A stretch of DNA of 40,291 bases from Methanobacteriota archaeon (GTDB lineage: Archaea; Thermoplasmatota; Poseidoniia; Poseidoniales; Poseidoniaceae), in assembly GCA_002706065.1 (NCBI GenBank), contig PAJM01000008.1:1-40291 (forward strand). Reading direction: 5' to 3'. Position 1 is the stretch's first letter. Each line of letters starts with the position of its first letter. Positions 28,135 through 36,408 of the stretch are shown here, piece by piece. The notes under the pieces are model-generated. The model had not been told where the DNA came from. It saw nothing but the letters and a program-made list of their open reading frames with translations, and did not search any database. The position numbers and the translations under genes are program-made.

Positions 28135-28254
28135 ACCCTTAGCGTCAGATGAGGCAATGGTCGTTGATTTCGCCCATTTTCATTCAGGGACAAGAAGGAC
28201 GGTAGAGCGACGAGGTTTTAGTCCAGTGTTGATACGGTTGTGTTAGGTGACACC

Positions 28255-31200
28255 ATGGCCAATGAAAACCGACGAACAAAAATTGCGCTCTTTCTCGTGA
28301 TGTTGATGGTTCTAACCCCACTCGCTAGCGGAGCCAGCATAACCAATTTCAGTTCTGGAACAAGCGAAGCTGAAATTGTATTGAATGATGCTGCAACCTA
28401 CTCCGATCATGTCGATGGTGCTGTCGACTTGCCACTTGGCGATTCGATAACATCTGCCAGTATGGCCGTCAGTTCCACTCCAGCTGTCCACGGTGCACAC
28501 ACTCGAATCGATATCGAGACCATGCCTCGTGTCTGGAATCCAAATTTTAACGGTCAGACGACCTCGTTTTCCAAGGCTGAAGACTTCCAGTTTGAGGACG
28601 GTTCAACTTCGACACCTGTCTCGTTGAAGGCAGAGGGGCTGTTGACGGATTTTGAAAGCGACCCTGCAGGATTTATGGATGGCACAACACCACCACTCCA
28701 ATCTGGAGCACCTTGGTCGCACGGCTCACTCTTTGGAGGGGCGGTCTTACCTACAAACTGTGCATCGGGCAGCGATTGTTGGGGAACGGGTCTCTACGAC
28801 AAGGATTACACCGATGACAACAACGGTGCAGCGTTCAAGGAAGTTCTCCTCTCACCGACACTTGATCTTTCATCGGGAACGGCTGTTAAAGACCCATCCG
28901 TTTACTTCGACTCTTTCCACCAGTTGATGACACTCTCAACCTCGAGTTCAACGAATCCAACATATCGATACGCAGATTGTGCTTACATTGAAATTCGTAC
29001 CTCTCCCACTCCTGTGTTCGATCCAGCAGCGACATGGGAGCACATTGATATCGACATCCAGAATTCATCCGGATTATCGTTCGGCTCAGGATACTATCAG
29101 GTCGGTAGCTCAGGATCGAACAACAAAATTGACGGCCGATGCAACGGCGTGAACTACAACGATTACGCGCTTGGAGGCACCTCAATCTCCACATTTAATC
29201 CGAGCGGATGGGCAAGCATCAAACTCGATCTCTCCGATTATGGAGGAAACTACATCGAACTTCGTTTCGTTCTTGAGTACAACAACGTTCTACCTTCAGG
29301 TGGTTACAACGTCTACAACGTCACCTCAATGCCAGGCTGGTACATCGACAACTTCCGATTTGGAAGTACGCTCCCTCAATCAGGATGGATGGGCGTTCGA
29401 AACATTCTGCCGAACGCTCAGGGTGGCGAGAACCATCCGAATGGATACGGAATCTTGACGATTGAAGCCGAAACGACAACGACCGCTGTCCTTTCTCTCG
29501 ACATTCTTGATTCACTAACAGGCCAAGTGGTCAATGACGACAATGGAAATGCAATGTCGGGACTCGTTGGCTCCATCCATGAGTTGTGGGACATCAATTC
29601 TTCGACGTATCCGACCGTAGATTTCCGATTCAACTTTGATTCAGGGCCTGATCAACTGTCAACACCGGTCCTCCACGGTTTTTCAATTGGAAGTCGAATC
29701 GGAACGGGTTTCAATCAAACCATCATCTCAGCGAATCCACCCGAAAATGGAATCTGGGCCTCACAAGGTCTTGGGGACTTGATGATGTACAATCCAGTGA
29801 TTCCTGACCATTCGTACAACCCGCCAATGGACCGTTCTCACTTCAGTTATCCTATCGCTTCGATTACGCCCGTCATAGAAGACGACTGTGCGGAATCTCC
29901 AGAAATTTCGGTAGCAATGGATGGATACGGTATCCAAATGCAAAACAATGTCAAGTACACACTCGGTGAATCAGCGGACATGCCAGATTCAACGTTTGGA
30001 TTTACCGCTGTTCTCTCGTATCAGAATCCATGCAACGTAGCAGGAATGTGGTTCGATCTTGAATTCGCTCACCACGCAGAGCAAATCCAGATTGACGTTG
30101 CTGGCGATGGTGACATGGAGTATTCCTTCACGGAACCAGCGTTCGATATGTTTGGCCGCCAAACGAAATTCATCAGTTCGAAAGATGCGAACGATGTTCA
30201 TTATGGAACCGACTCAAGGACGCTTGCGCTCAGTTTGTCTGGTACGGTTGACGGTGGTGAATTCATGCTCCCAGTAGGGGCGACCATACAGGCTGCAGAG
30301 GTTGGCTTCGACAACAACCAAATCATTTCAACAACCAACATGAATGAAGGATTTACTTGGAAATTGATGTCTGGTTTGGAAGAGGTAAATCTCGGCGAAA
30401 TCGGCAACATTACTCGAGGGGCACAGGAGATGTACCCCGAACAAATGAATCTCACATCTGCACTTAACACGTTGATGCAAAGTACGCTCACTCCAACTGC
30501 ACATATTGACGCCAATGGAAACGGATGGAAGAAATTCAGGTTCAGCATTGAAAGCCTCAATGCGACCAGTGGGTCCACCATCGATCTGGTAGGTCTCGAT
30601 GTGGTGTACGATGTCACGCATTACCTCACAACTGCGAATGAGTTTGCGAAGGAACTTGCCCAAGGGGTTGCGCTTTCCTCATCGACGGTTGGTTACGCCA
30701 CTGTTCCAATCGCAGTTCATGCAACAAGCGGTGGAGGCGTCTCCTTCTCCAGTCTTTCCGTGATCACATCTCCCGGATACACAACAACAGCATCACTTGT
30801 TGGAAGCCCTGTTGGTCTCTACCCGAACGGTGAGATTTACGAAATTGTTACGACGCACACAGTATCCTCTCTAACCGGATCCAGCTTCCAAGAAGCATCG
30901 CTGATCTTCGAATCAACGACGGGAACCATCGAATTGGCCTATTCCGATTTGAATGGCTTTACTGAAGTCGAAAATTCGAACAATTACATCTCCTTACAAG
31001 CATCTTCAGTGACAGACATCACCGAAGGCAAGGAAATTACATGGCGCTTTATCGTCAACAATGTTTGGGAAGATACTGAACAAGTTCGGATTTACGCTGG
31101 ACAAACTGCAAGCAATGGTGTCAACGGATTGCCCGATGCTATTGTCCTCGCACCAAGCGGTGGAAACGCAGTTGAGAACGATGCTGGAATCACGCTTTTC

Positions 31201-34152
31201 TCTGTTCTTAATGAAGAAGGTGTAGTTCAGAATCTTGATTCAGGAAACTCAAACCGATATGTGCGCATGACCGGTAGTGTTCGACTTGAATCCCTCAATG
31301 TCGCACCAGACCCATTGAGTTACTTCACAGTCGTTGAAGAGCGCAGCATCAACAGTTCAGGCGAGCAGCCGGTGTTTGAATGGACCGAGATTGCCAACCA
31401 ATCCGGTACGATTGGCGGTGATTTCGATTGGACCATGGACTTGGGGCCAACGACAGCGGGTGATCATTACTACCGATTCAGACTAACAGGCTATGAAGGT
31501 GGAGACACCGTTTGTCCAACGTCGGAATACCGACCTGACGATGCCTGTGCAATTCCATTCAACTTGACTGTTGACCAATTTGCACCAGAACTCGTTTCTG
31601 TGAAGGTCCTGAACGGGCAGGTCGATCCAAACTACGAATCCAACTGGCGAAGTCTCGTTGACGACACGTGGGTAATCCCATCCAACAACCAGTACGTCAA
31701 GGTCGGTGTCACAGACTTCCAGGACCTTCCAGCAACACTCAACCTCTACTACTGGGTTGAATATCAACACGATACCAACAGTGATGGTGTTGCTGACCAG
31801 AGTGAATACGCAATGGTCGCTTTGACTGGCGACGCAGCTTACCCAACGGCAAATTACACAGGCAACTACAATGATTTGGCGAATGCAGAGAAAGACCCAG
31901 TCGGTCGTGTCAGCATGTACCTCGAAGGCTATGACCTTGCTGGGAACGCAATTGATGGAGGTTCATATGGAATTTTCAACGATGAAGTAACTTATGCTTC
32001 CATGCCTTCCAAATCTCCAGAAATTCTCAAGTTTAGCATTGAGAATTCAGCTGGACGCCCGCTGCTCAATTCCAACCACCCTTCCTACGAAGGCGATTGG
32101 AATCAAACGATGTATGCTGGAAACGAATACCACCTCATTGTTGAGGCTGAAGATCGCAACGGTTGGAGAGACATCGACTACATTCAAGTCGAATTGACCA
32201 ACGACCGTGATGATCTCACCCTCTACTATTTCCCTCGAAATGAAACCGCATGGACGGACAGCCCTCACATCACAATTGTTCCAGAAGGTGAGGATTCCGA
32301 TGGACCGCAATTGCTTCGAATGGACGGCGACTATCTTGTCAATCCATTTACCGATGAGTTCTACCTCGACCTCCCGATTCGCATCAACTGGGGTATTGTT
32401 GGGTTGCAAAGCCTCGCATCTCCAGTAATCTCAATCGCTGACTTGGATGGAAACGATAAGCGTAAGATCGTTGGTTCAACGACTGAAATCACTCAGTGGT
32501 ACTATTCCGATGGAATCCGCCTCGACATTCGCACCGATGAAGCGAACGATTTGATGATTACACCGTACTTTAGCGACATCAGTCCACCGGTTACAGCAGA
32601 CGTTCGTGAGGGGTATGTCTACCCTGGAAACACCATCGCATTCGAAGGTCAATATGCATACATTGACGGGATTTTGGACAGTGTCTACATCCTGCCTGAA
32701 ATGGAATTAACACTCGAAGTTACACGACTTGAAGCCCAACCAAGCACAGTGGGCGGAGTTCAGTATTTCGCTTATGGCGCAGGTGGTGCAGATGGTACTA
32801 AGCAAGATGGACAACCAACTTATCACACCTTCAAGGGAGGCGCGTTCAACATTAACATCACTGCGCCAACATCAACCAACGAATACACGTATCAGTTCAA
32901 GCTCGTCAACCTGCCTGAGGGCGCTCTCGATACAACTGAAGCAGCATGTGCGACCTCAACGTCGTACGGTTGTGGAGACTTCGTCATCAAGGTCGATGCA
33001 AACGCTCCAGCAGTTCGGTCCAACACATGGACTGCACGAGATGAAGCAGGCACAGTTCTCGAGGATTCAGTTTCAACCTCGAATTTCAGATGTGTCGATG
33101 TTTCACTGCAAATCGACGAGAAGGAAGCCTTGTTCCAAGGCGACATCTCGGTTGCTTGGAAGTTTTACATTGACCCAACCAATGATGTCACATGGCCTTT
33201 CTACGGACAAATCCACGGAATTGATCCACTTACAGCACCGCTTTCATTGACGCCGGTTGCTGGTGGTTATGCTGCGAGTGCTGAATGTGTCGATCTCTGG
33301 CCATCAACCGAACAGGAATTGCCAACGCAAGAGCAAATCAACAACATTGAGGTTGTGTTCTGGATCGTCGGCGCAGATTCTGCAGGTTCAGCAGTTCTCG
33401 GTGGAGGTCCAACCGGTGATGGTTCGATTGCACCGATTTACTCTGGTGAAGCACGATACAACTCATTGTACAATTTCATCTTCGAAGAAGCGAGCTATTC
33501 CGTGAAAGAAATCGATCTCCTTCCACGTTCACCAGAAGTCGGTGAATCAATGACCTTGACCATTGAAGTCGTCAATACGGGTTCAAAGGCTGGAGAGGCA
33601 ACACTCCGGATTCAATCGGTCGTTGATGGCGGTATTCCAGTCACTGAAAAGACTGTTACAACAGAACTCATTCCAATCGATGGAGAGGTTGATGTTGAGG
33701 TGATACTGGAATCCTTCGTCAACCCAACCACAGGGATGTATTACCTTGTCTTTGATGATGTAACAGGTGAATTGCTCTACAATGGTTCAAGCACTGGTGA
33801 CAGTTTCAACGTCAAGATTGCAAGCGATAGCGATGATTCAGGAACGCTGATGTTGATTATCGTCATTCTCATCGGTTTGATTCTCGTGATGGGCATCGTT
33901 GGTTTGGTCGTTATGCGCCGAGGCAACAACGAAACCGATCAATACCTCTACGAGGATGAGGAAGAGACGAAGGCTTACGCTTCATTGCCTGGTCAATACA
34001 ACGAACCAGCTGCGGCACCACCTGCAGATGTCAGCCCACAAATGGCTGAAGCCATGCAAAAGTTCCCGCAGTGGTCACAAGCCGAGATTCAAGGTTACTT
34101 TGACCAAGGATGGGATATCGCCTCCCTACAAGATTGGCTCGACAACCAATGA
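28255..34152 (+). CDS. Giant secreted surface protein with C-terminal membrane anchor
   Basis: The 1965-aa protein has a signal peptide (RRTKIALFLVMLMVLTPLASGAS). A long beta-rich extracellular part follows, with many Asn-x-Ser/Thr sites and scattered Cys pairs. A Ca-binding-like loop DTNSDGVADQSEY lies in the middle. A CARDB-like domain (RSPEVGESMTLTIEVVNTGS) precedes one membrane helix (about 1863-1887). The 78-residue cytoplasmic tail is acidic, then Ala/Pro-rich, and ends in a compact WSQAEIQGYFDQGWDIASL segment. No protease motif is visible, so adhesion, S-layer association or polymer binding are guesses. ATG 28255 has AGGTGA 4 nt upstream; an in-frame GTG at 28240 is rejected. Confidence 0.88.
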   Translation: MANENRRTKIALFLVMLMVLTPLASGASITNFSSGTSEAEIVLNDAATYSDHVDGAVDLPLGDSITSASMAVSSTPAVHGAHTRIDIETMPRVWNPNFNGQTTSFSKAEDFQFEDGSTSTPVSLKAEGLLTDFESDPAGFMDGTTPPLQSGAPWSHGSLFGGAVLPTNCASGSDCWGTGLYDKDYTDDNNGAAFKEVLLSPTLDLSSGTAVKDPSVYFDSFHQLMTLSTSSSTNPTYRYADCAYIEIRTSPTPVFDPAATWEHIDIDIQNSSGLSFGSGYYQVGSSGSNNKIDGRCNGVNYNDYALGGTSISTFNPSGWASIKLDLSDYGGNYIELRFVLEYNNVLPSGGYNVYNVTSMPGWYIDNFRFGSTLPQSGWMGVRNILPNAQGGENHPNGYGILTIEAETTTTAVLSLDILDSLTGQVVNDDNGNAMSGLVGSIHELWDINSSTYPTVDFRFNFDSGPDQLSTPVLHGFSIGSRIGTGFNQTIISANPPENGIWASQGLGDLMMYNPVIPDHSYNPPMDRSHFSYPIASITPVIEDDCAESPEISVAMDGYGIQMQNNVKYTLGESADMPDSTFGFTAVLSYQNPCNVAGMWFDLEFAHHAEQIQIDVAGDGDMEYSFTEPAFDMFGRQTKFISSKDANDVHYGTDSRTLALSLSGTVDGGEFMLPVGATIQAAEVGFDNNQIISTTNMNEGFTWKLMSGLEEVNLGEIGNITRGAQEMYPEQMNLTSALNTLMQSTLTPTAHIDANGNGWKKFRFSIESLNATSGSTIDLVGLDVVYDVTHYLTTANEFAKELAQGVALSSSTVGYATVPIAVHATSGGGVSFSSLSVITSPGYTTTASLVGSPVGLYPNGEIYEIVTTHTVSSLTGSSFQEASLIFESTTGTIELAYSDLNGFTEVENSNNYISLQASSVTDITEGKEITWRFIVNNVWEDTEQVRIYAGQTASNGVNGLPDAIVLAPSGGNAVENDAGITLFSVLNEEGVVQNLDSGNSNRYVRMTGSVRLESLNVAPDPLSYFTVVEERSINSSGEQPVFEWTEIANQSGTIGGDFDWTMDLGPTTAGDHYYRFRLTGYEGGDTVCPTSEYRPDDACAIPFNLTVDQFAPELVSVKVLNGQVDPNYESNWRSLVDDTWVIPSNNQYVKVGVTDFQDLPATLNLYYWVEYQHDTNSDGVADQSEYAMVALTGDAAYPTANYTGNYNDLANAEKDPVGRVSMYLEGYDLAGNAIDGGSYGIFNDEVTYASMPSKSPEILKFSIENSAGRPLLNSNHPSYEGDWNQTMYAGNEYHLIVEAEDRNGWRDIDYIQVELTNDRDDLTLYYFPRNETAWTDSPHITIVPEGEDSDGPQLLRMDGDYLVNPFTDEFYLDLPIRINWGIVGLQSLASPVISIADLDGNDKRKIVGSTTEITQWYYSDGIRLDIRTDEANDLMITPYFSDISPPVTADVREGYVYPGNTIAFEGQYAYIDGILDSVYILPEMELTLEVTRLEAQPSTVGGVQYFAYGAGGADGTKQDGQPTYHTFKGGAFNINITAPTSTNEYTYQFKLVNLPEGALDTTEAACATSTSYGCGDFVIKVDANAPAVRSNTWTARDEAGTVLEDSVSTSNFRCVDVSLQIDEKEALFQGDISVAWKFYIDPTNDVTWPFYGQIHGIDPLTAPLSLTPVAGGYAASAECVDLWPSTEQELPTQEQINNIEVVFWIVGADSAGSAVLGGGPTGDGSIAPIYSGEARYNSLYNFIFEEASYSVKEIDLLPRSPEVGESMTLTIEVVNTGSKAGEATLRIQSVVDGGIPVTEKTVTTELIPIDGEVDVEVILESFVNPTTGMYYLVFDDVTGELLYNGSSTGDSFNVKIASDSDDSGTLMLIIVILIGLILVMGIVGLVVMRRGNNETDQYLYEDEEETKAYASLPGQYNEPAAAPPADVSPQMAEAMQKFPQWSQAEIQGYFDQGWDIASLQDWLDNQ

Positions 34153-34165
34153 TGGACGTGACCAC

Positions 34166-34972
34166 TTGAGTGTGGATTTGTCGTGGGAAGACATTGTCTG
34201 GGAGGACCCTGATGGGGGTCGAATTGTCCTACATGGAGTTCTTCCTACTACCGTTCATCCTCGTGCACTAAGGCCTCGGATTGAATGGCATGCACTCACA
34301 TTGCTTGAAGGTCCAGAAATTGAGGATGTTTGGCAACTGGAAGAAGAATCTGAAAAAGAATCACCAGGCATAAATCTCGCTTCCGCTATCTTAGGCGGGG
34401 GTCTCGATTCGGCCTTGATTGAGGATTTGACTCAACTCGATGAGATTCAAACCGGGCGATTTCCCGATCCAGAACCTCGACGTTTGCATCGACTTGCACT
34501 CCGTCACAATCGGCCAGTGTATTGCATTGAACCGACTCTCGATGATGCTGATTGGGAAGAGCAACGAACGCAAGAGGCGAAGGTATCGACCCATTGGCGA
34601 AAGTTACTGTCCATGGTTCGAATAGGGAAGAAGTGGAAAAAAGCAGTCAAAGTCCGAATCTTCGATGCAGTACCTCCTCCAAAGAACGTACCAAAAGATA
34701 TGGCGACTGCTTCGGTTCTTACCGCAGCGTGGTGGGATTTGACCGAATCAAGAATCAACTCAACGCTCTCAAAAGCCAGAGATGAACGATTTGCGAAGCG
34801 TCTCCGTGGAGCACTCGCTGTGGAACGCGCAAAACACGGCGATTCAGCGACGTTACTTCTGCCAATGGTTCAGACGTGGAGACCCGCACTTCTCGCAATG
34901 CTCAATTCAAATCCTCAACCAGAGGAGATTATTTCATCAACAAGCCCATCGGAACAACAGGAGGAGGAGTGA
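34166..34972 (+). CDS. Uncharacterised 268-aa protein upstream of the TBP-like gene
   Basis: I do not recognise this soluble protein. It begins (M)SVDLSWEDIVWEDPDGGRI, has a small beta segment (IVLHGVLPTTVHPR), an acidic stretch EDVWQLEEESEKE and a Gly-rich turn SAILGGGLDSALIED. A basic, helical second half follows (HWRKLLSMVRIGKKWKKAVK, RFAKRLRGALAVERAKHG). No ATG lies near: a TTG at 34166 follows GTGA with a 4-nt spacer, and a GTG at 34172 is an alternative. The open frame extends further upstream only inside the giant gene. Its stop shares a base with the next ATG (TGATG), so it is co-translated with the TBP-like protein. Confidence 0.7.
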   Translation: MSVDLSWEDIVWEDPDGGRIVLHGVLPTTVHPRALRPRIEWHALTLLEGPEIEDVWQLEEESEKESPGINLASAILGGGLDSALIEDLTQLDEIQTGRFPDPEPRRLHRLALRHNRPVYCIEPTLDDADWEEQRTQEAKVSTHWRKLLSMVRIGKKWKKAVKVRIFDAVPPPKNVPKDMATASVLTAAWWDLTESRINSTLSKARDERFAKRLRGALAVERAKHGDSATLLLPMVQTWRPALLAMLNSNPQPEEIISSTSPSEQQEEE

Positions 34973-35505
34973 TGAGCGGCAACATTGACGTTACAGTCGA
35001 GAATCAACTGGTTCGTTTTGTCGCCCCCGAACCGATTGATGGCAACGCAGTTGTAGAGCACCTCGATGGTCAACGTTTTGGAAAAATGGTCATCAAGGCA
35101 CTGCGAAGACCAAGAGCGACGCTTGTCATTGATCCTGAAGGACGCATTACCGTACACGGTACTCATCGCATCGAAGCAGCGCGCGATGCTGCGAAAGAGC
35201 TGATGCTTCGCCTTGGAAAAGACGATACCGGTTTGAAAACAGAACTGGGACCGATCATCGCCTCATTCTACTTCAATACGCCAATTAAGGTCCAATCCAT
35301 CGTTGGCCAATTGGGTGCAGGTGAAGGTCAATACGATGACCGTCTCGATTGTGGCATCATCAAAGACGAACGACACGATCTTGTCCTTCACGTGTGGGAA
35401 AACGGTCGTTGTGTCGTCACGGATGGCCGTCACCCGAAGATGGTTGCAATGGCTGCTGTTTATTGGCAATCAAAATTCAAAGACCTTGGGATCTCCAACT
35501 TTTGA
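34972..35505 (+). CDS. Divergent TATA-binding-protein-like protein
   Basis: The 177-aa protein has the two-repeat plan and length of archaeal TBP (about 180 aa). Repeat 1 holds QRFGKMVIKALRRPRATLVI and GRITVHGTHRIEAARDAAKEL, the counterpart of the FPGLVYR, ATLIFSSGK and TGAKS..DA segments. Repeat 2 holds IIASFYFNTPIKVQSIVGQ, LDCGIIKDERHDLVLHVWE and GRCVVTDGRHPK. Most of the DNA-kinking Phe positions appear changed (FPG to FGK and LDCG; IF to VI and HVW), so it may not bind a standard TATA box. GGAGGAG precedes the ATG. It lies between an unknown gene and a TatD-like gene on one strand. A canonical TBP is presumably elsewhere. Confidence 0.6.
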   Translation: MSGNIDVTVENQLVRFVAPEPIDGNAVVEHLDGQRFGKMVIKALRRPRATLVIDPEGRITVHGTHRIEAARDAAKELMLRLGKDDTGLKTELGPIIASFYFNTPIKVQSIVGQLGAGEGQYDDRLDCGIIKDERHDLVLHVWENGRCVVTDGRHPKMVAMAAVYWQSKFKDLGISNF

Positions 35506-35514
35506 GGGTTCAGC

Positions 35515-36408
35515 ATGGTCGATGCTCAACGGCTTTGGAAAGGCCCCATTCTTGACAATCATTTCCATCTCAACAGAAAAGGTCGCTTCTTGGATGCTGC
35601 GAAGGACTTCAAGAACGTTGGTGGAACCCATCTCGTTTTGGTCCACTGCCCAGATTTCTCATCGCCTCCAACCTCAATGAACGAACACAGAGAAACCTAT
35701 GCGGACACCGTTGCTATGGCGGAGAAGGTCCGAAACGAGCACAATCTGCATGTCCGTGTTGTTCTTGGCCCACATCCTGCAGCCTTTGCTCATCAATTCA
35801 TCAATTGGATGGAACAGGATGGAGAAAAAGGAATCGAGCGTGCATGTGAAAATTATCGAGACAGCATCGATGCAGCCCTTGAATACGTGAAGCAAGGTCA
35901 AGCCCACGCTATTGGTGAAGTTGGCCGACCTCATTGGGATGTTTCCGACGAGATATGGGATCTTTCCAATCAGTTGCTGGAGGAAACCATGGCCTTGGCT
36001 GCAAGGGAAGGCGTACCCCTGCAACTTCATGTTGAAGGAGAATTGGAATCAACCTATCGAGATTTATCCAATATGGCTGCGAGAGCGAATCTCCCTGCTC
36101 ACCGTTTGATTCGACATTATTCGCCCCCACAGATCGACGAATCCATTACACGCGGACTTACATCGAGTGTTCTTGTCGGGAAAGGTGCGCTTGAACCACT
36201 TCTTGCAACCTATGAACAAAACCAAACTGGATTCATGCTGGAAACCGATTATATGGATGACCCACGCCGCCCGGGGGCTGTTCTTGGACCAAAGACTGTA
36301 CCAAAACGAACTCAACAATTGATGGAAGCTGGGATGGATGAGGAGATTCTCTGGAGATGTCACGTCGATGTTCCAAACGCCCTGTACGGTGACGCAGAAG
36401 AATCGTAA
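35515..36408 (+). CDS. TatD-like metal-dependent hydrolase
   Basis: The 297-aa TIM-barrel protein has the TatD-family metal ligands: DNHFHL (HxH), AHAIGEVGRPHW (bridging Glu), PLQLHVEG (His), LIRHYSPP (His) and FMLETDYMDDP (final Asp). It follows the archaeal TatD-related group more than bacterial DNase TatD. Nuclease or other hydrolase activity is plausible; the substrate is unknown. ATG 35515 follows GAGGG with a 7-nt spacer and is 9 nt after the TBP-like stop. Confidence 0.88.
   Translation: MVDAQRLWKGPILDNHFHLNRKGRFLDAAKDFKNVGGTHLVLVHCPDFSSPPTSMNEHRETYADTVAMAEKVRNEHNLHVRVVLGPHPAAFAHQFINWMEQDGEKGIERACENYRDSIDAALEYVKQGQAHAIGEVGRPHWDVSDEIWDLSNQLLEETMALAAREGVPLQLHVEGELESTYRDLSNMAARANLPAHRLIRHYSPPQIDESITRGLTSSVLVGKGALEPLLATYEQNQTGFMLETDYMDDPRRPGAVLGPKTVPKRTQQLMEAGMDEEILWRCHVDVPNALYGDAEES

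What the first reader, a model, noticed from the sequence alone, without database searches (positions are those of the whole stretch)
34972..35505. Divergent TBP paralogue with altered DNA-intercalating positions, encoded in an operon
Seen: a 177-aa protein with two direct repeats that line up with TBP segments, with the FPG and IF phenylalanine motifs largely replaced. Known: TBP inserts paired Phe residues into the minor groove of the TATA box. Inference: a TBP-fold factor with changed DNA specificity, or one moved to another role, made together with an unknown basic protein and a TatD-like hydrolase.
Basis: partly seen in the sequence, partly recalled or inferred. Interest (0 to 1): 0.72.

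Follow-up and report, generated by a model that had tools for sequence, protein, structure and literature searches.

The report
Order-wide divergent TBP paralogue in Poseidoniales
Marine Group II archaea carry, besides their normal TATA-box-binding protein, a second protein of the same fold whose DNA-gripping residues have been replaced, always made from the same three-gene operon; what it binds is unknown, so it points to an unstudied factor in one of the ocean's commonest archaea.

Summary
Window 34972-35505 encodes a 177-aa protein that passes Pfam's TBP cut-off. Its family profile finds solved TBPs at E 7.6e-11, and its confident AlphaFold2 model (pLDDT 92.8) matches only TBPs well (M. jannaschii TBP, Z 17.1). 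A separate canonical TBP is present in this genome and in 60/60 Poseidoniales searched. The paralogue occurs in 141/145 genomes of the order (33/33 near-complete), single copy, under strong purifying selection; no orthologue was seen in Marine Group III or the rest of the phylum sampled. Three of four TATA-kinking Phe positions are lost: one is acidic (D/E 59/60), two mainly Gly or other small/polar residues. One stays aromatic (W/F 60/60). A TFB-contacting Glu is Arg in 50/60. It sits in a fixed operon (39/40 wide loci) with an order-specific TraB-fold-like protein (acidic, not 'basic') and a TatD-family hydrolase with intact metal ligands. TBP-TatD adjacency in other families suggests an ancestral TBP locus. 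Identity is near certain; the role, a non-TATA initiation factor (favoured) or a nucleic-acid-binding partner of the operon, is unproven. New variant of a known kind.

The parts
34172..34972 (+). Upstream operon gene: order-specific protein of about 266 aa (start GTG 34172, or TTG 34166), TraB-fold-like, lacking the TraB GTAH and GAGH histidines
   Evidence: AlphaFold2 pLDDT 93.3; the only Foldseek/VIA matches above background are Tetrahymena complex IV 'TraB family protein' chains, Z 9.7 over 207 residues; 30/30 Poseidoniales, 0/87 other Thermoplasmatota
34972..35505 (+). TBP paralogue (TBPL), 177 aa, two TBP lobes
   Evidence: Pfam PF00352 33.7 bits; profile E 7.6e-11 to PDB TBP; model Z 17.1 to TBP; dN 0.023 against near-saturated dS
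34990..35217 (+). N-terminal TBP lobe (residues 7-82)
   Evidence: AlphaFold2 secondary structure E8-17 H24-31 E34-36 E39-44 E49-53 E59-62 H67-80
35236..35490 (+). C-terminal TBP lobe (residues 89-173); first helix much shortened
   Evidence: AlphaFold2 secondary structure
35068..35091 (+). N-lobe stirrup (residues 33-40): about 3 residues shorter than in canonical TBP, F193 position lost (Gly37)
   Evidence: HHalign to canonical Poseidoniales TBP; column counts
35131..35133 (+). Codon 54, equivalent of intercalating F210 (N.L5.1): Asp here, D/E in 59/60
35335..35343 (+). Codons 122-124, TFB-contact stirrup: D122 keeps C.L3.2 acidic (56/60 D/E); R124 reverses C.L3.4 (Glu in TBP; R 50/60)
   Evidence: contact assignment from PMC7221094
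35347..35349 (+). Codon 126, equivalent of intercalating F284: Asp here, Gly in most of the family
35395..35397 (+). Codon 142, equivalent of intercalating F301 (C.L5.1): Trp here, W/F in 60/60
35155..35157 (+). Codon 62, His (59/60) at the position of human TBP Thr218, on the inferred concave face together with R15, T50 and D54
35515..36408 (+). TatD-family metal hydrolase, 297 aa; all six metal-ligand positions conserved in 89/89 loci sequences; the only TatD-family match in this genome
   Evidence: PF01026 92.1 bits

Best explanation
[quoted passage not shown] about 0.97). It has lost the double-Phe kink on the N-lobe side and half of it on the C-lobe side, and it carries an acidic residue where F210 inserts. 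It therefore very probably does not bend TATA DNA as TBP does (inferred; about 0.8). The likeliest role is an alternative initiation or regulatory factor: TBPL uses a remodelled concave surface (conserved N11, R15, T50, D54, H62, W/F142) to bind DNA of another sequence or shape. It would recruit a TFB through its altered C-terminal stirrup, plausibly the order's second TFB (TFB2), and so direct the polymerase to a subset of promoters or modulate the canonical TBP (inferred; about 0.4). The TraB-like protein and the TatD hydrolase are presumably co-expressed and may modulate or be controlled with it (inferred).
For: Homology and fold. Separate canonical TBP in the same genomes. Near-universal single copy within the order. 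Strong purifying selection. Changed intercalators and TFB contact, with conserved new residues on the inferred concave face. Net charge is less negative (median -3 against -15 in canonical TBP), which suits a nucleic-acid binder. A second full-length TFB (zinc ribbon plus two cyclin repeats) occurs in most Poseidoniales genomes searched; its Thr facing TBP's C.L3.4 Glu is changed (Q 28/30 and R 2/30; K, R, Q, S, P or T), while canonical TFB keeps T 29/29. Where TBPL position 124 is Glu again, TFB2 is Thr again in two genera (g14, g20); all four Thr genomes have Glu. Precedent: the dinoflagellate C. cohnii TBP-like factor lacks all four Phe and binds TTTT (PMC5029490); TBPL1 has Trp at N.L5.1 (PMC7221094).
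Against: No expression or binding data exist. The genus-level chance of the TFB2/TBPL covariation is 0.022, chosen after seeing the data, and most f2 genomes pair R with K/R, which is not complementary. TFB2 was not found in several genomes that have TBPL, though these genomes are incomplete. An acidic residue in the minor-groove position disfavours DNA there. The strict linkage is to TraB-like and TatD genes, not to a transcription gene.
Confidence: 0.4

Rival explanations
1. TBPL has left transcription and is the nucleic-acid-binding (or scaffolding) subunit of a processing or repair module with its operon partners: it would recognise distorted DNA, an RNA/DNA hybrid or RNA and present it to the TatD-family hydrolase, with the TraB-fold protein as a structural partner.
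For: The gene order upstream-TBPL-TatD is fixed in 39/40 wide loci while flanking genes are kept in 18, 9 and 19 of 40; overlapping or abutting reading frames; TatD metal ligands 89/89; TBP-type lobes serve as substrate-binding domains of RNase H3 (PMC4132731); acidic residue at the DNA-intercalating position and Arg in place of the TFB-binding Glu.
Against: Adjacency to TatD is also seen for canonical TBP in families f6 and f30, so the linkage may be inherited gene order rather than a shared task. TatD is near-universal in the phylum (77/80), mostly without TBPL. No direct interaction data.
Confidence: 0.3
2. TBPL is a regulator of the canonical machinery that does not bind DNA: it titrates TFB, or caps canonical TBP through saddle-to-saddle contacts.
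For: Intercalators lost while the fold and part of the TFB-contact site (D122, L125) are kept. A TBP dimer is among the solved structures matched (1vok).
Against: E286R in human TBP reduces transcription, in line with weaker TFIIB contact (PMC7221094), and R124 mimics it. Conserved polar residues on the inferred concave face suggest a specific ligand.
Confidence: 0.15
3. An ordinary extra TBP that still binds TATA-like promoters, as the multiple TBPs of halophiles and methanogens are thought to do.
For: Multiple TBPs and TFBs are well known in archaea (PMC2121645); TBPL keeps a full two-lobe saddle and one aromatic intercalator.
Against: Three of four intercalators lost, an acidic residue at N.L5.1 in 59/60, Thr218 to His and Asn253 to Pro, shortened N stirrup. 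The canonical TBP in the same genomes is nearly invariant (mean column entropy 0.25 bits against 1.71 for TBPL).
Confidence: 0.08

Closest known systems
Canonical archaeal/eukaryotic TBP (PF00352), e.g. M. jannaschii TBP 2z8u
   Same: Two-lobe saddle fold, detectable sequence homology, length
   Different: 14-18% identity; three of four intercalating Phe lost, N stirrup shortened, TFB-contact Glu reversed to Arg, less acidic than the canonical TBP of the same genomes
TBP-like factor of the dinoflagellate Crypthecodinium cohnii (PMC5029490)
   Same: TBP homologue without the intercalating Phe residues
   Different: Eukaryotic; no canonical TBP in at least one dinoflagellate transcriptome; no known operon. 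TBPL coexists with canonical TBP and keeps one aromatic
Metazoan TBPL1/TRF2 (PMC7221094)
   Same: TBP paralogue with a changed residue at N.L5.1, coexisting with TBP
   Different: TBPL1 has Trp at N.L5.1 and mostly keeps the signature positions; here the residue is Asp/Glu
Multiple TBPs of Halobacterium NRC-1 (PMC2121645)
   Same: Extra TBP and TFB copies in an archaeon
   Different: Those were studied as transcription factors; their residues were not compared here. TBPL is order-wide and single copy
RNase H3 N-terminal TBP-related domain (PMC4132731)
   Same: TBP-type lobe used with a nuclease
   Different: One lobe, fused to the nuclease; TBPL has two lobes and is a separate protein
Poxviral VITF-3 and VETF TBP-like subunits (PMC12917281)
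   Same: Highly diverged TBP folds that recognise DNA by other means (Ile intercalation; major-groove contact)
   Different: Viral; VITF-3 is a TBP/TFIIB heterodimer; no sequence relation tested. Poxviral initiation-complex chain 7amv_K matches the model only at Z 7.9

Membership tests
TBP family (PF00352), as homology and fold | Sequence match above the curated cut-off | tested here: met
   33.7 bits against 22.9 for the window protein; several orthologues pass on their own in genome scans, others fall just under
TBP family (PF00352), as homology and fold | Two-lobe TBP saddle fold | tested here: met
   Model pLDDT 92.8, pTM 0.71; Z 17.1, rmsd 2.3, 164 residues aligned to 2z8u_A; every row above Z 13 is a TBP
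Canonical TATA-kinking TBP | Two pairs of intercalating Phe (F193/F210, F284/F301) | tested here: not met
   G37, D/E54 and G126 (mainly) replace three; only the F301 position is aromatic, W/F
Canonical TBP, TFB recruitment | Acidic residues at both C.L3.2 and C.L3.4 | tested here: not met
   C.L3.2 acidic in 56/60 (D122); C.L3.4 is Arg in 50/60 and Glu in 3 (contacts from PMC7221094)
Canonical TBP | Sequence-specific TATA binding and support of transcription | not testable with these tools
   Needs protein and DNA
Orthogonal TBP-TFB pair (TBPL with TFB2) | Co-occurrence and compensating contact residues | tested here: inconclusive
   TFB2 in most but not all genomes with TBPL; T with E in two genera, genus-level chance 0.022
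TatD family (downstream gene) | PF01026 match and HxH, E, H, H, D metal ligands | tested here: met
   92.1 bits against a cut-off of 27; all six positions invariant in 89 loci
TraB family (upstream gene) | Sequence profile match | tested here: not met
   No TraB hit in Pfam; HHalign to a TraB profile from the phylum not significant
TraB family (upstream gene) | TraB fold | tested here: inconclusive
   Best and only matches above background are 'TraB family protein' chains of Tetrahymena complex IV, Z 9.3-9.7 but rmsd 5.1-5.4 and Foldseek E 0.02

The most novel reading that the evidence does not exclude
Poseidoniales run a second, order-wide orthogonal initiation system: a TBP paralogue that recognises non-TATA DNA without the double-Phe kink, paired with its own TFB2 through a changed stirrup contact, and controlled by a TraB-like protein and a TatD-family hydrolase made from the same operon.
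Probability: 0.15. Interest if true: 0.85.

Novelty: new variant of a known kind. Interest (0 to 1): 0.62.

Why it matters
TBP is among the most conserved transcription factors; this is a whole order of abundant marine archaea that keeps a second copy with the DNA-gripping and TFB-gripping residues replaced by other conserved ones. It would test directly how far the TBP saddle can be re-used, and would give a first handle on promoter choice or nucleic-acid handling in organisms with few laboratory tools. No description of it was found in the literature searched.

Tried and rejected
(1) Non-TBP fold or chance similarity: rejected. (2) The only TBP in the genome: rejected; the canonical TBP is on C21, with an identically scoring copy on C30, probably an assembly duplicate. 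(3) Virus or mobile origin: a scan of viral contigs with the window protein found no relative (it reaches close relatives only); the same scan with the family alignment could not be run. (4) Wider spread: no orthologue in Marine Group III or other Thermoplasmatota sampled; the weak matches looked at there are canonical TBPs or other divergent TBPs. (5) Placing TBPL on a TBP tree: it forms one clade (100/100) on a branch of about 4 changes per column, so its sister group cannot be told. (6) Upstream protein as TraB by sequence: not significant; by fold only suggestive. A first PDB sequence search with one TraB protein found nothing; the profile search named the chains. (7) TBPL-TFB2 covariation: suggestive only. 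(8) Two regular-expression attempts at TFB contact residues missed most sequences; replaced by an alignment. (9) The paper on TBP-domain superfamily history (PMC3597702) is not held; a search for TBP with TatD and operon gave one genome paper (Thermoproteus tenax), not read. (11) First family searches failed on a wrong frame for the upstream gene and were repeated.

Full report
WHAT IS THERE. The ORF at 34972-35505 is real: 177 aa, ATG at 34972 inside a TGATG overlap with the stop of the gene before it. Among close relatives dN is 0.024-0.068 while synonymous sites are close to saturated, so it is a strongly constrained protein.

IT IS A TBP HOMOLOGUE. Pfam TBP scores 33.7 bits against a cut-off of 22.9. 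A single-sequence PDB search finds TBPs at E 0.04; a profile of 49 relatives finds them at 7.6e-11; HHalign against canonical Poseidoniales TBP aligns 172 columns at E 4.9e-15 and probability 98.4 in a one-to-one comparison. The AlphaFold2 model (pLDDT 92.8, pTM 0.71) matches TBPs from Z 17.1 downwards, and every chain above Z 13 is a TBP. The rest are at Z 7.9 or less.

IT IS A PARALOGUE, FIXED IN ONE ORDER. The genome has a canonical TBP elsewhere, as do 60/60 Poseidoniales. TBPL is in 141 of 145 genomes of the order, 33/33 near-complete ones and 21/21 genera, always one match. The order is inferred to be Poseidoniales from the record titles of close relatives. No match of orthologue strength was found in the rest of the class (family f3, taken to be Marine Group III) or in the rest of the phylum sampled. 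All TBPLs form one clade on a very long branch. Canonical TBP in the same genomes is nearly invariant (mean entropy 0.25 bits), TBPL much less so (1.71).

CHANGED DNA AND TFB CONTACTS. Positions are mapped by alignment, not by a solved complex. F193: the N stirrup is about three residues shorter and the site is Gly37 in 51/60. F210: Asp/Glu in 59/60. F284: Gly in 38, Asp in 14, Glu in 5, Asn in 2, Ser in 1. F301: Trp 34, Phe 26. The window's own F36 occurs in no other of the 60 sequences. Other minor-groove positions: Asn163 is kept as Asn in 41/60, Thr218 is His in 59/60, Asn253 is Pro in 42/60 (the numbering of contacts is from general knowledge). TFB contacts: the acidic residue at C.L3.2 is kept (D/E 56/60); C.L3.4 is Arg in 50/60, and E286R in human TBP reduces transcription (PMC7221094). 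On the inferred concave face R15, T50 and H62 are among the most conserved residues, D54 also, which suggests a new specific ligand.

OPERON. Upstream gene, TBPL and TatD lie in this order in 39/40 wide loci from across the order, the 40th being cut by a contig end. The genes around them are found in 18, 9 and 19 of 40. The upstream protein is acidic, order-specific (30/30 against 0/87), confidently folded (pLDDT 93.3), and resembles only 'TraB family protein' chains of a ciliate respiratory complex (Z 9.7; named). By sequence it is not detectably TraB, and the histidines of the TraB GTAH and GAGH motifs have no counterpart in its invariant residues. The TatD-family protein keeps all six metal-ligand positions in 89/89 and is the only TatD match in this genome.

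ORIGIN. In five genomes of two other families (f6, f30) a canonical TBP gene lies directly before TatD, and in one genome of a third (f12) a divergent TBP does. So TBPL may sit at an old TBP locus: one copy kept the housekeeping role elsewhere while the copy at the TatD locus diverged. This is inference; the tree cannot test it.

TFB2. The genome has a second, full-length TFB, found in most of the order. Its Arg facing C.L3.2 is invariant; its residue facing C.L3.4 is Q, K, R or others instead of Thr. All four genomes with Thr there have Glu in TBPL (two genera). The chance at genus level is 0.022, and the test was chosen after seeing the data. It is a lead only.

HOW IT MIGHT WORK. Shown: fold, homology, distribution, residue changes, operon. 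Inferred: loss of canonical TATA kinking (about 0.8). Favoured role: an initiation or regulatory factor with other DNA recognition, possibly with TFB2 (0.4). Rival: nucleic-acid-binding partner of TatD and the TraB-like protein (0.3). Loss of the Phe residues does not exclude DNA binding: a dinoflagellate TBP-like factor without them binds TTTT (PMC5029490), and a poxviral factor inserts Ile (PMC12917281).

LIMITS. Nearly all genomes are incomplete assemblies, several under 85% complete. Contact assignments rest on alignment. The choice of concave-face residues follows the known TBP strand pattern, not measured coordinates. No description of this family was found in the papers searched, but most subscription papers are not held.

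Noticed in passing
L152 3342-4627, L153 745-1929, L154 3827-4966, L155 3419-4645, L157 2851-4000: Other Thermoplasmatota (families f16 and f34) carry a canonical TBP directly next to a second, divergent TBP on the same strand: a separate tandem TBP duplication.
   Followed up: partly
L225 2391-3778, L226 438-1912, L227 2371-3850, L229 3308-4775, L237 2357-3753: Canonical TBP lies immediately upstream of TatD in families f6 and f30, so TBP-TatD adjacency is not confined to Poseidoniales.
   Followed up: partly
L158 3764-5290: In G174 (family f12) a divergent TBP lies directly before TatD and reads LIMRNG where TBP has LIF; this genome has three TBP-like matches.
   Followed up: no
L156 3803-4393: A genome of the class outside the order (G148, family f3) has a second, very divergent TBP (tree branch 3.7) besides its canonical one.
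   Followed up: no
L245 (G000:C32:49006-50028): Second TFB of the order, with the TBP-contacting Thr replaced; its gene is often near contig ends in these assemblies.
   Followed up: partly
G000:C43:45101-45208: A 390-aa open frame contains a stretch 53% identical to the TFB2 zinc ribbon: a possible further TFB-like protein.
   Followed up: no
G000:C21:13854-14438 and G000:C30:6002-6586: The canonical TBP appears on two contigs with identical scores, probably an assembly duplicate.
   Followed up: no
window 28240-34152: Giant ORF (1970 aa) with a hydrophobic stretch near its C-terminus just before the operon; its C-terminal part is found near the operon in 18 of 40 loci.
   Followed up: no
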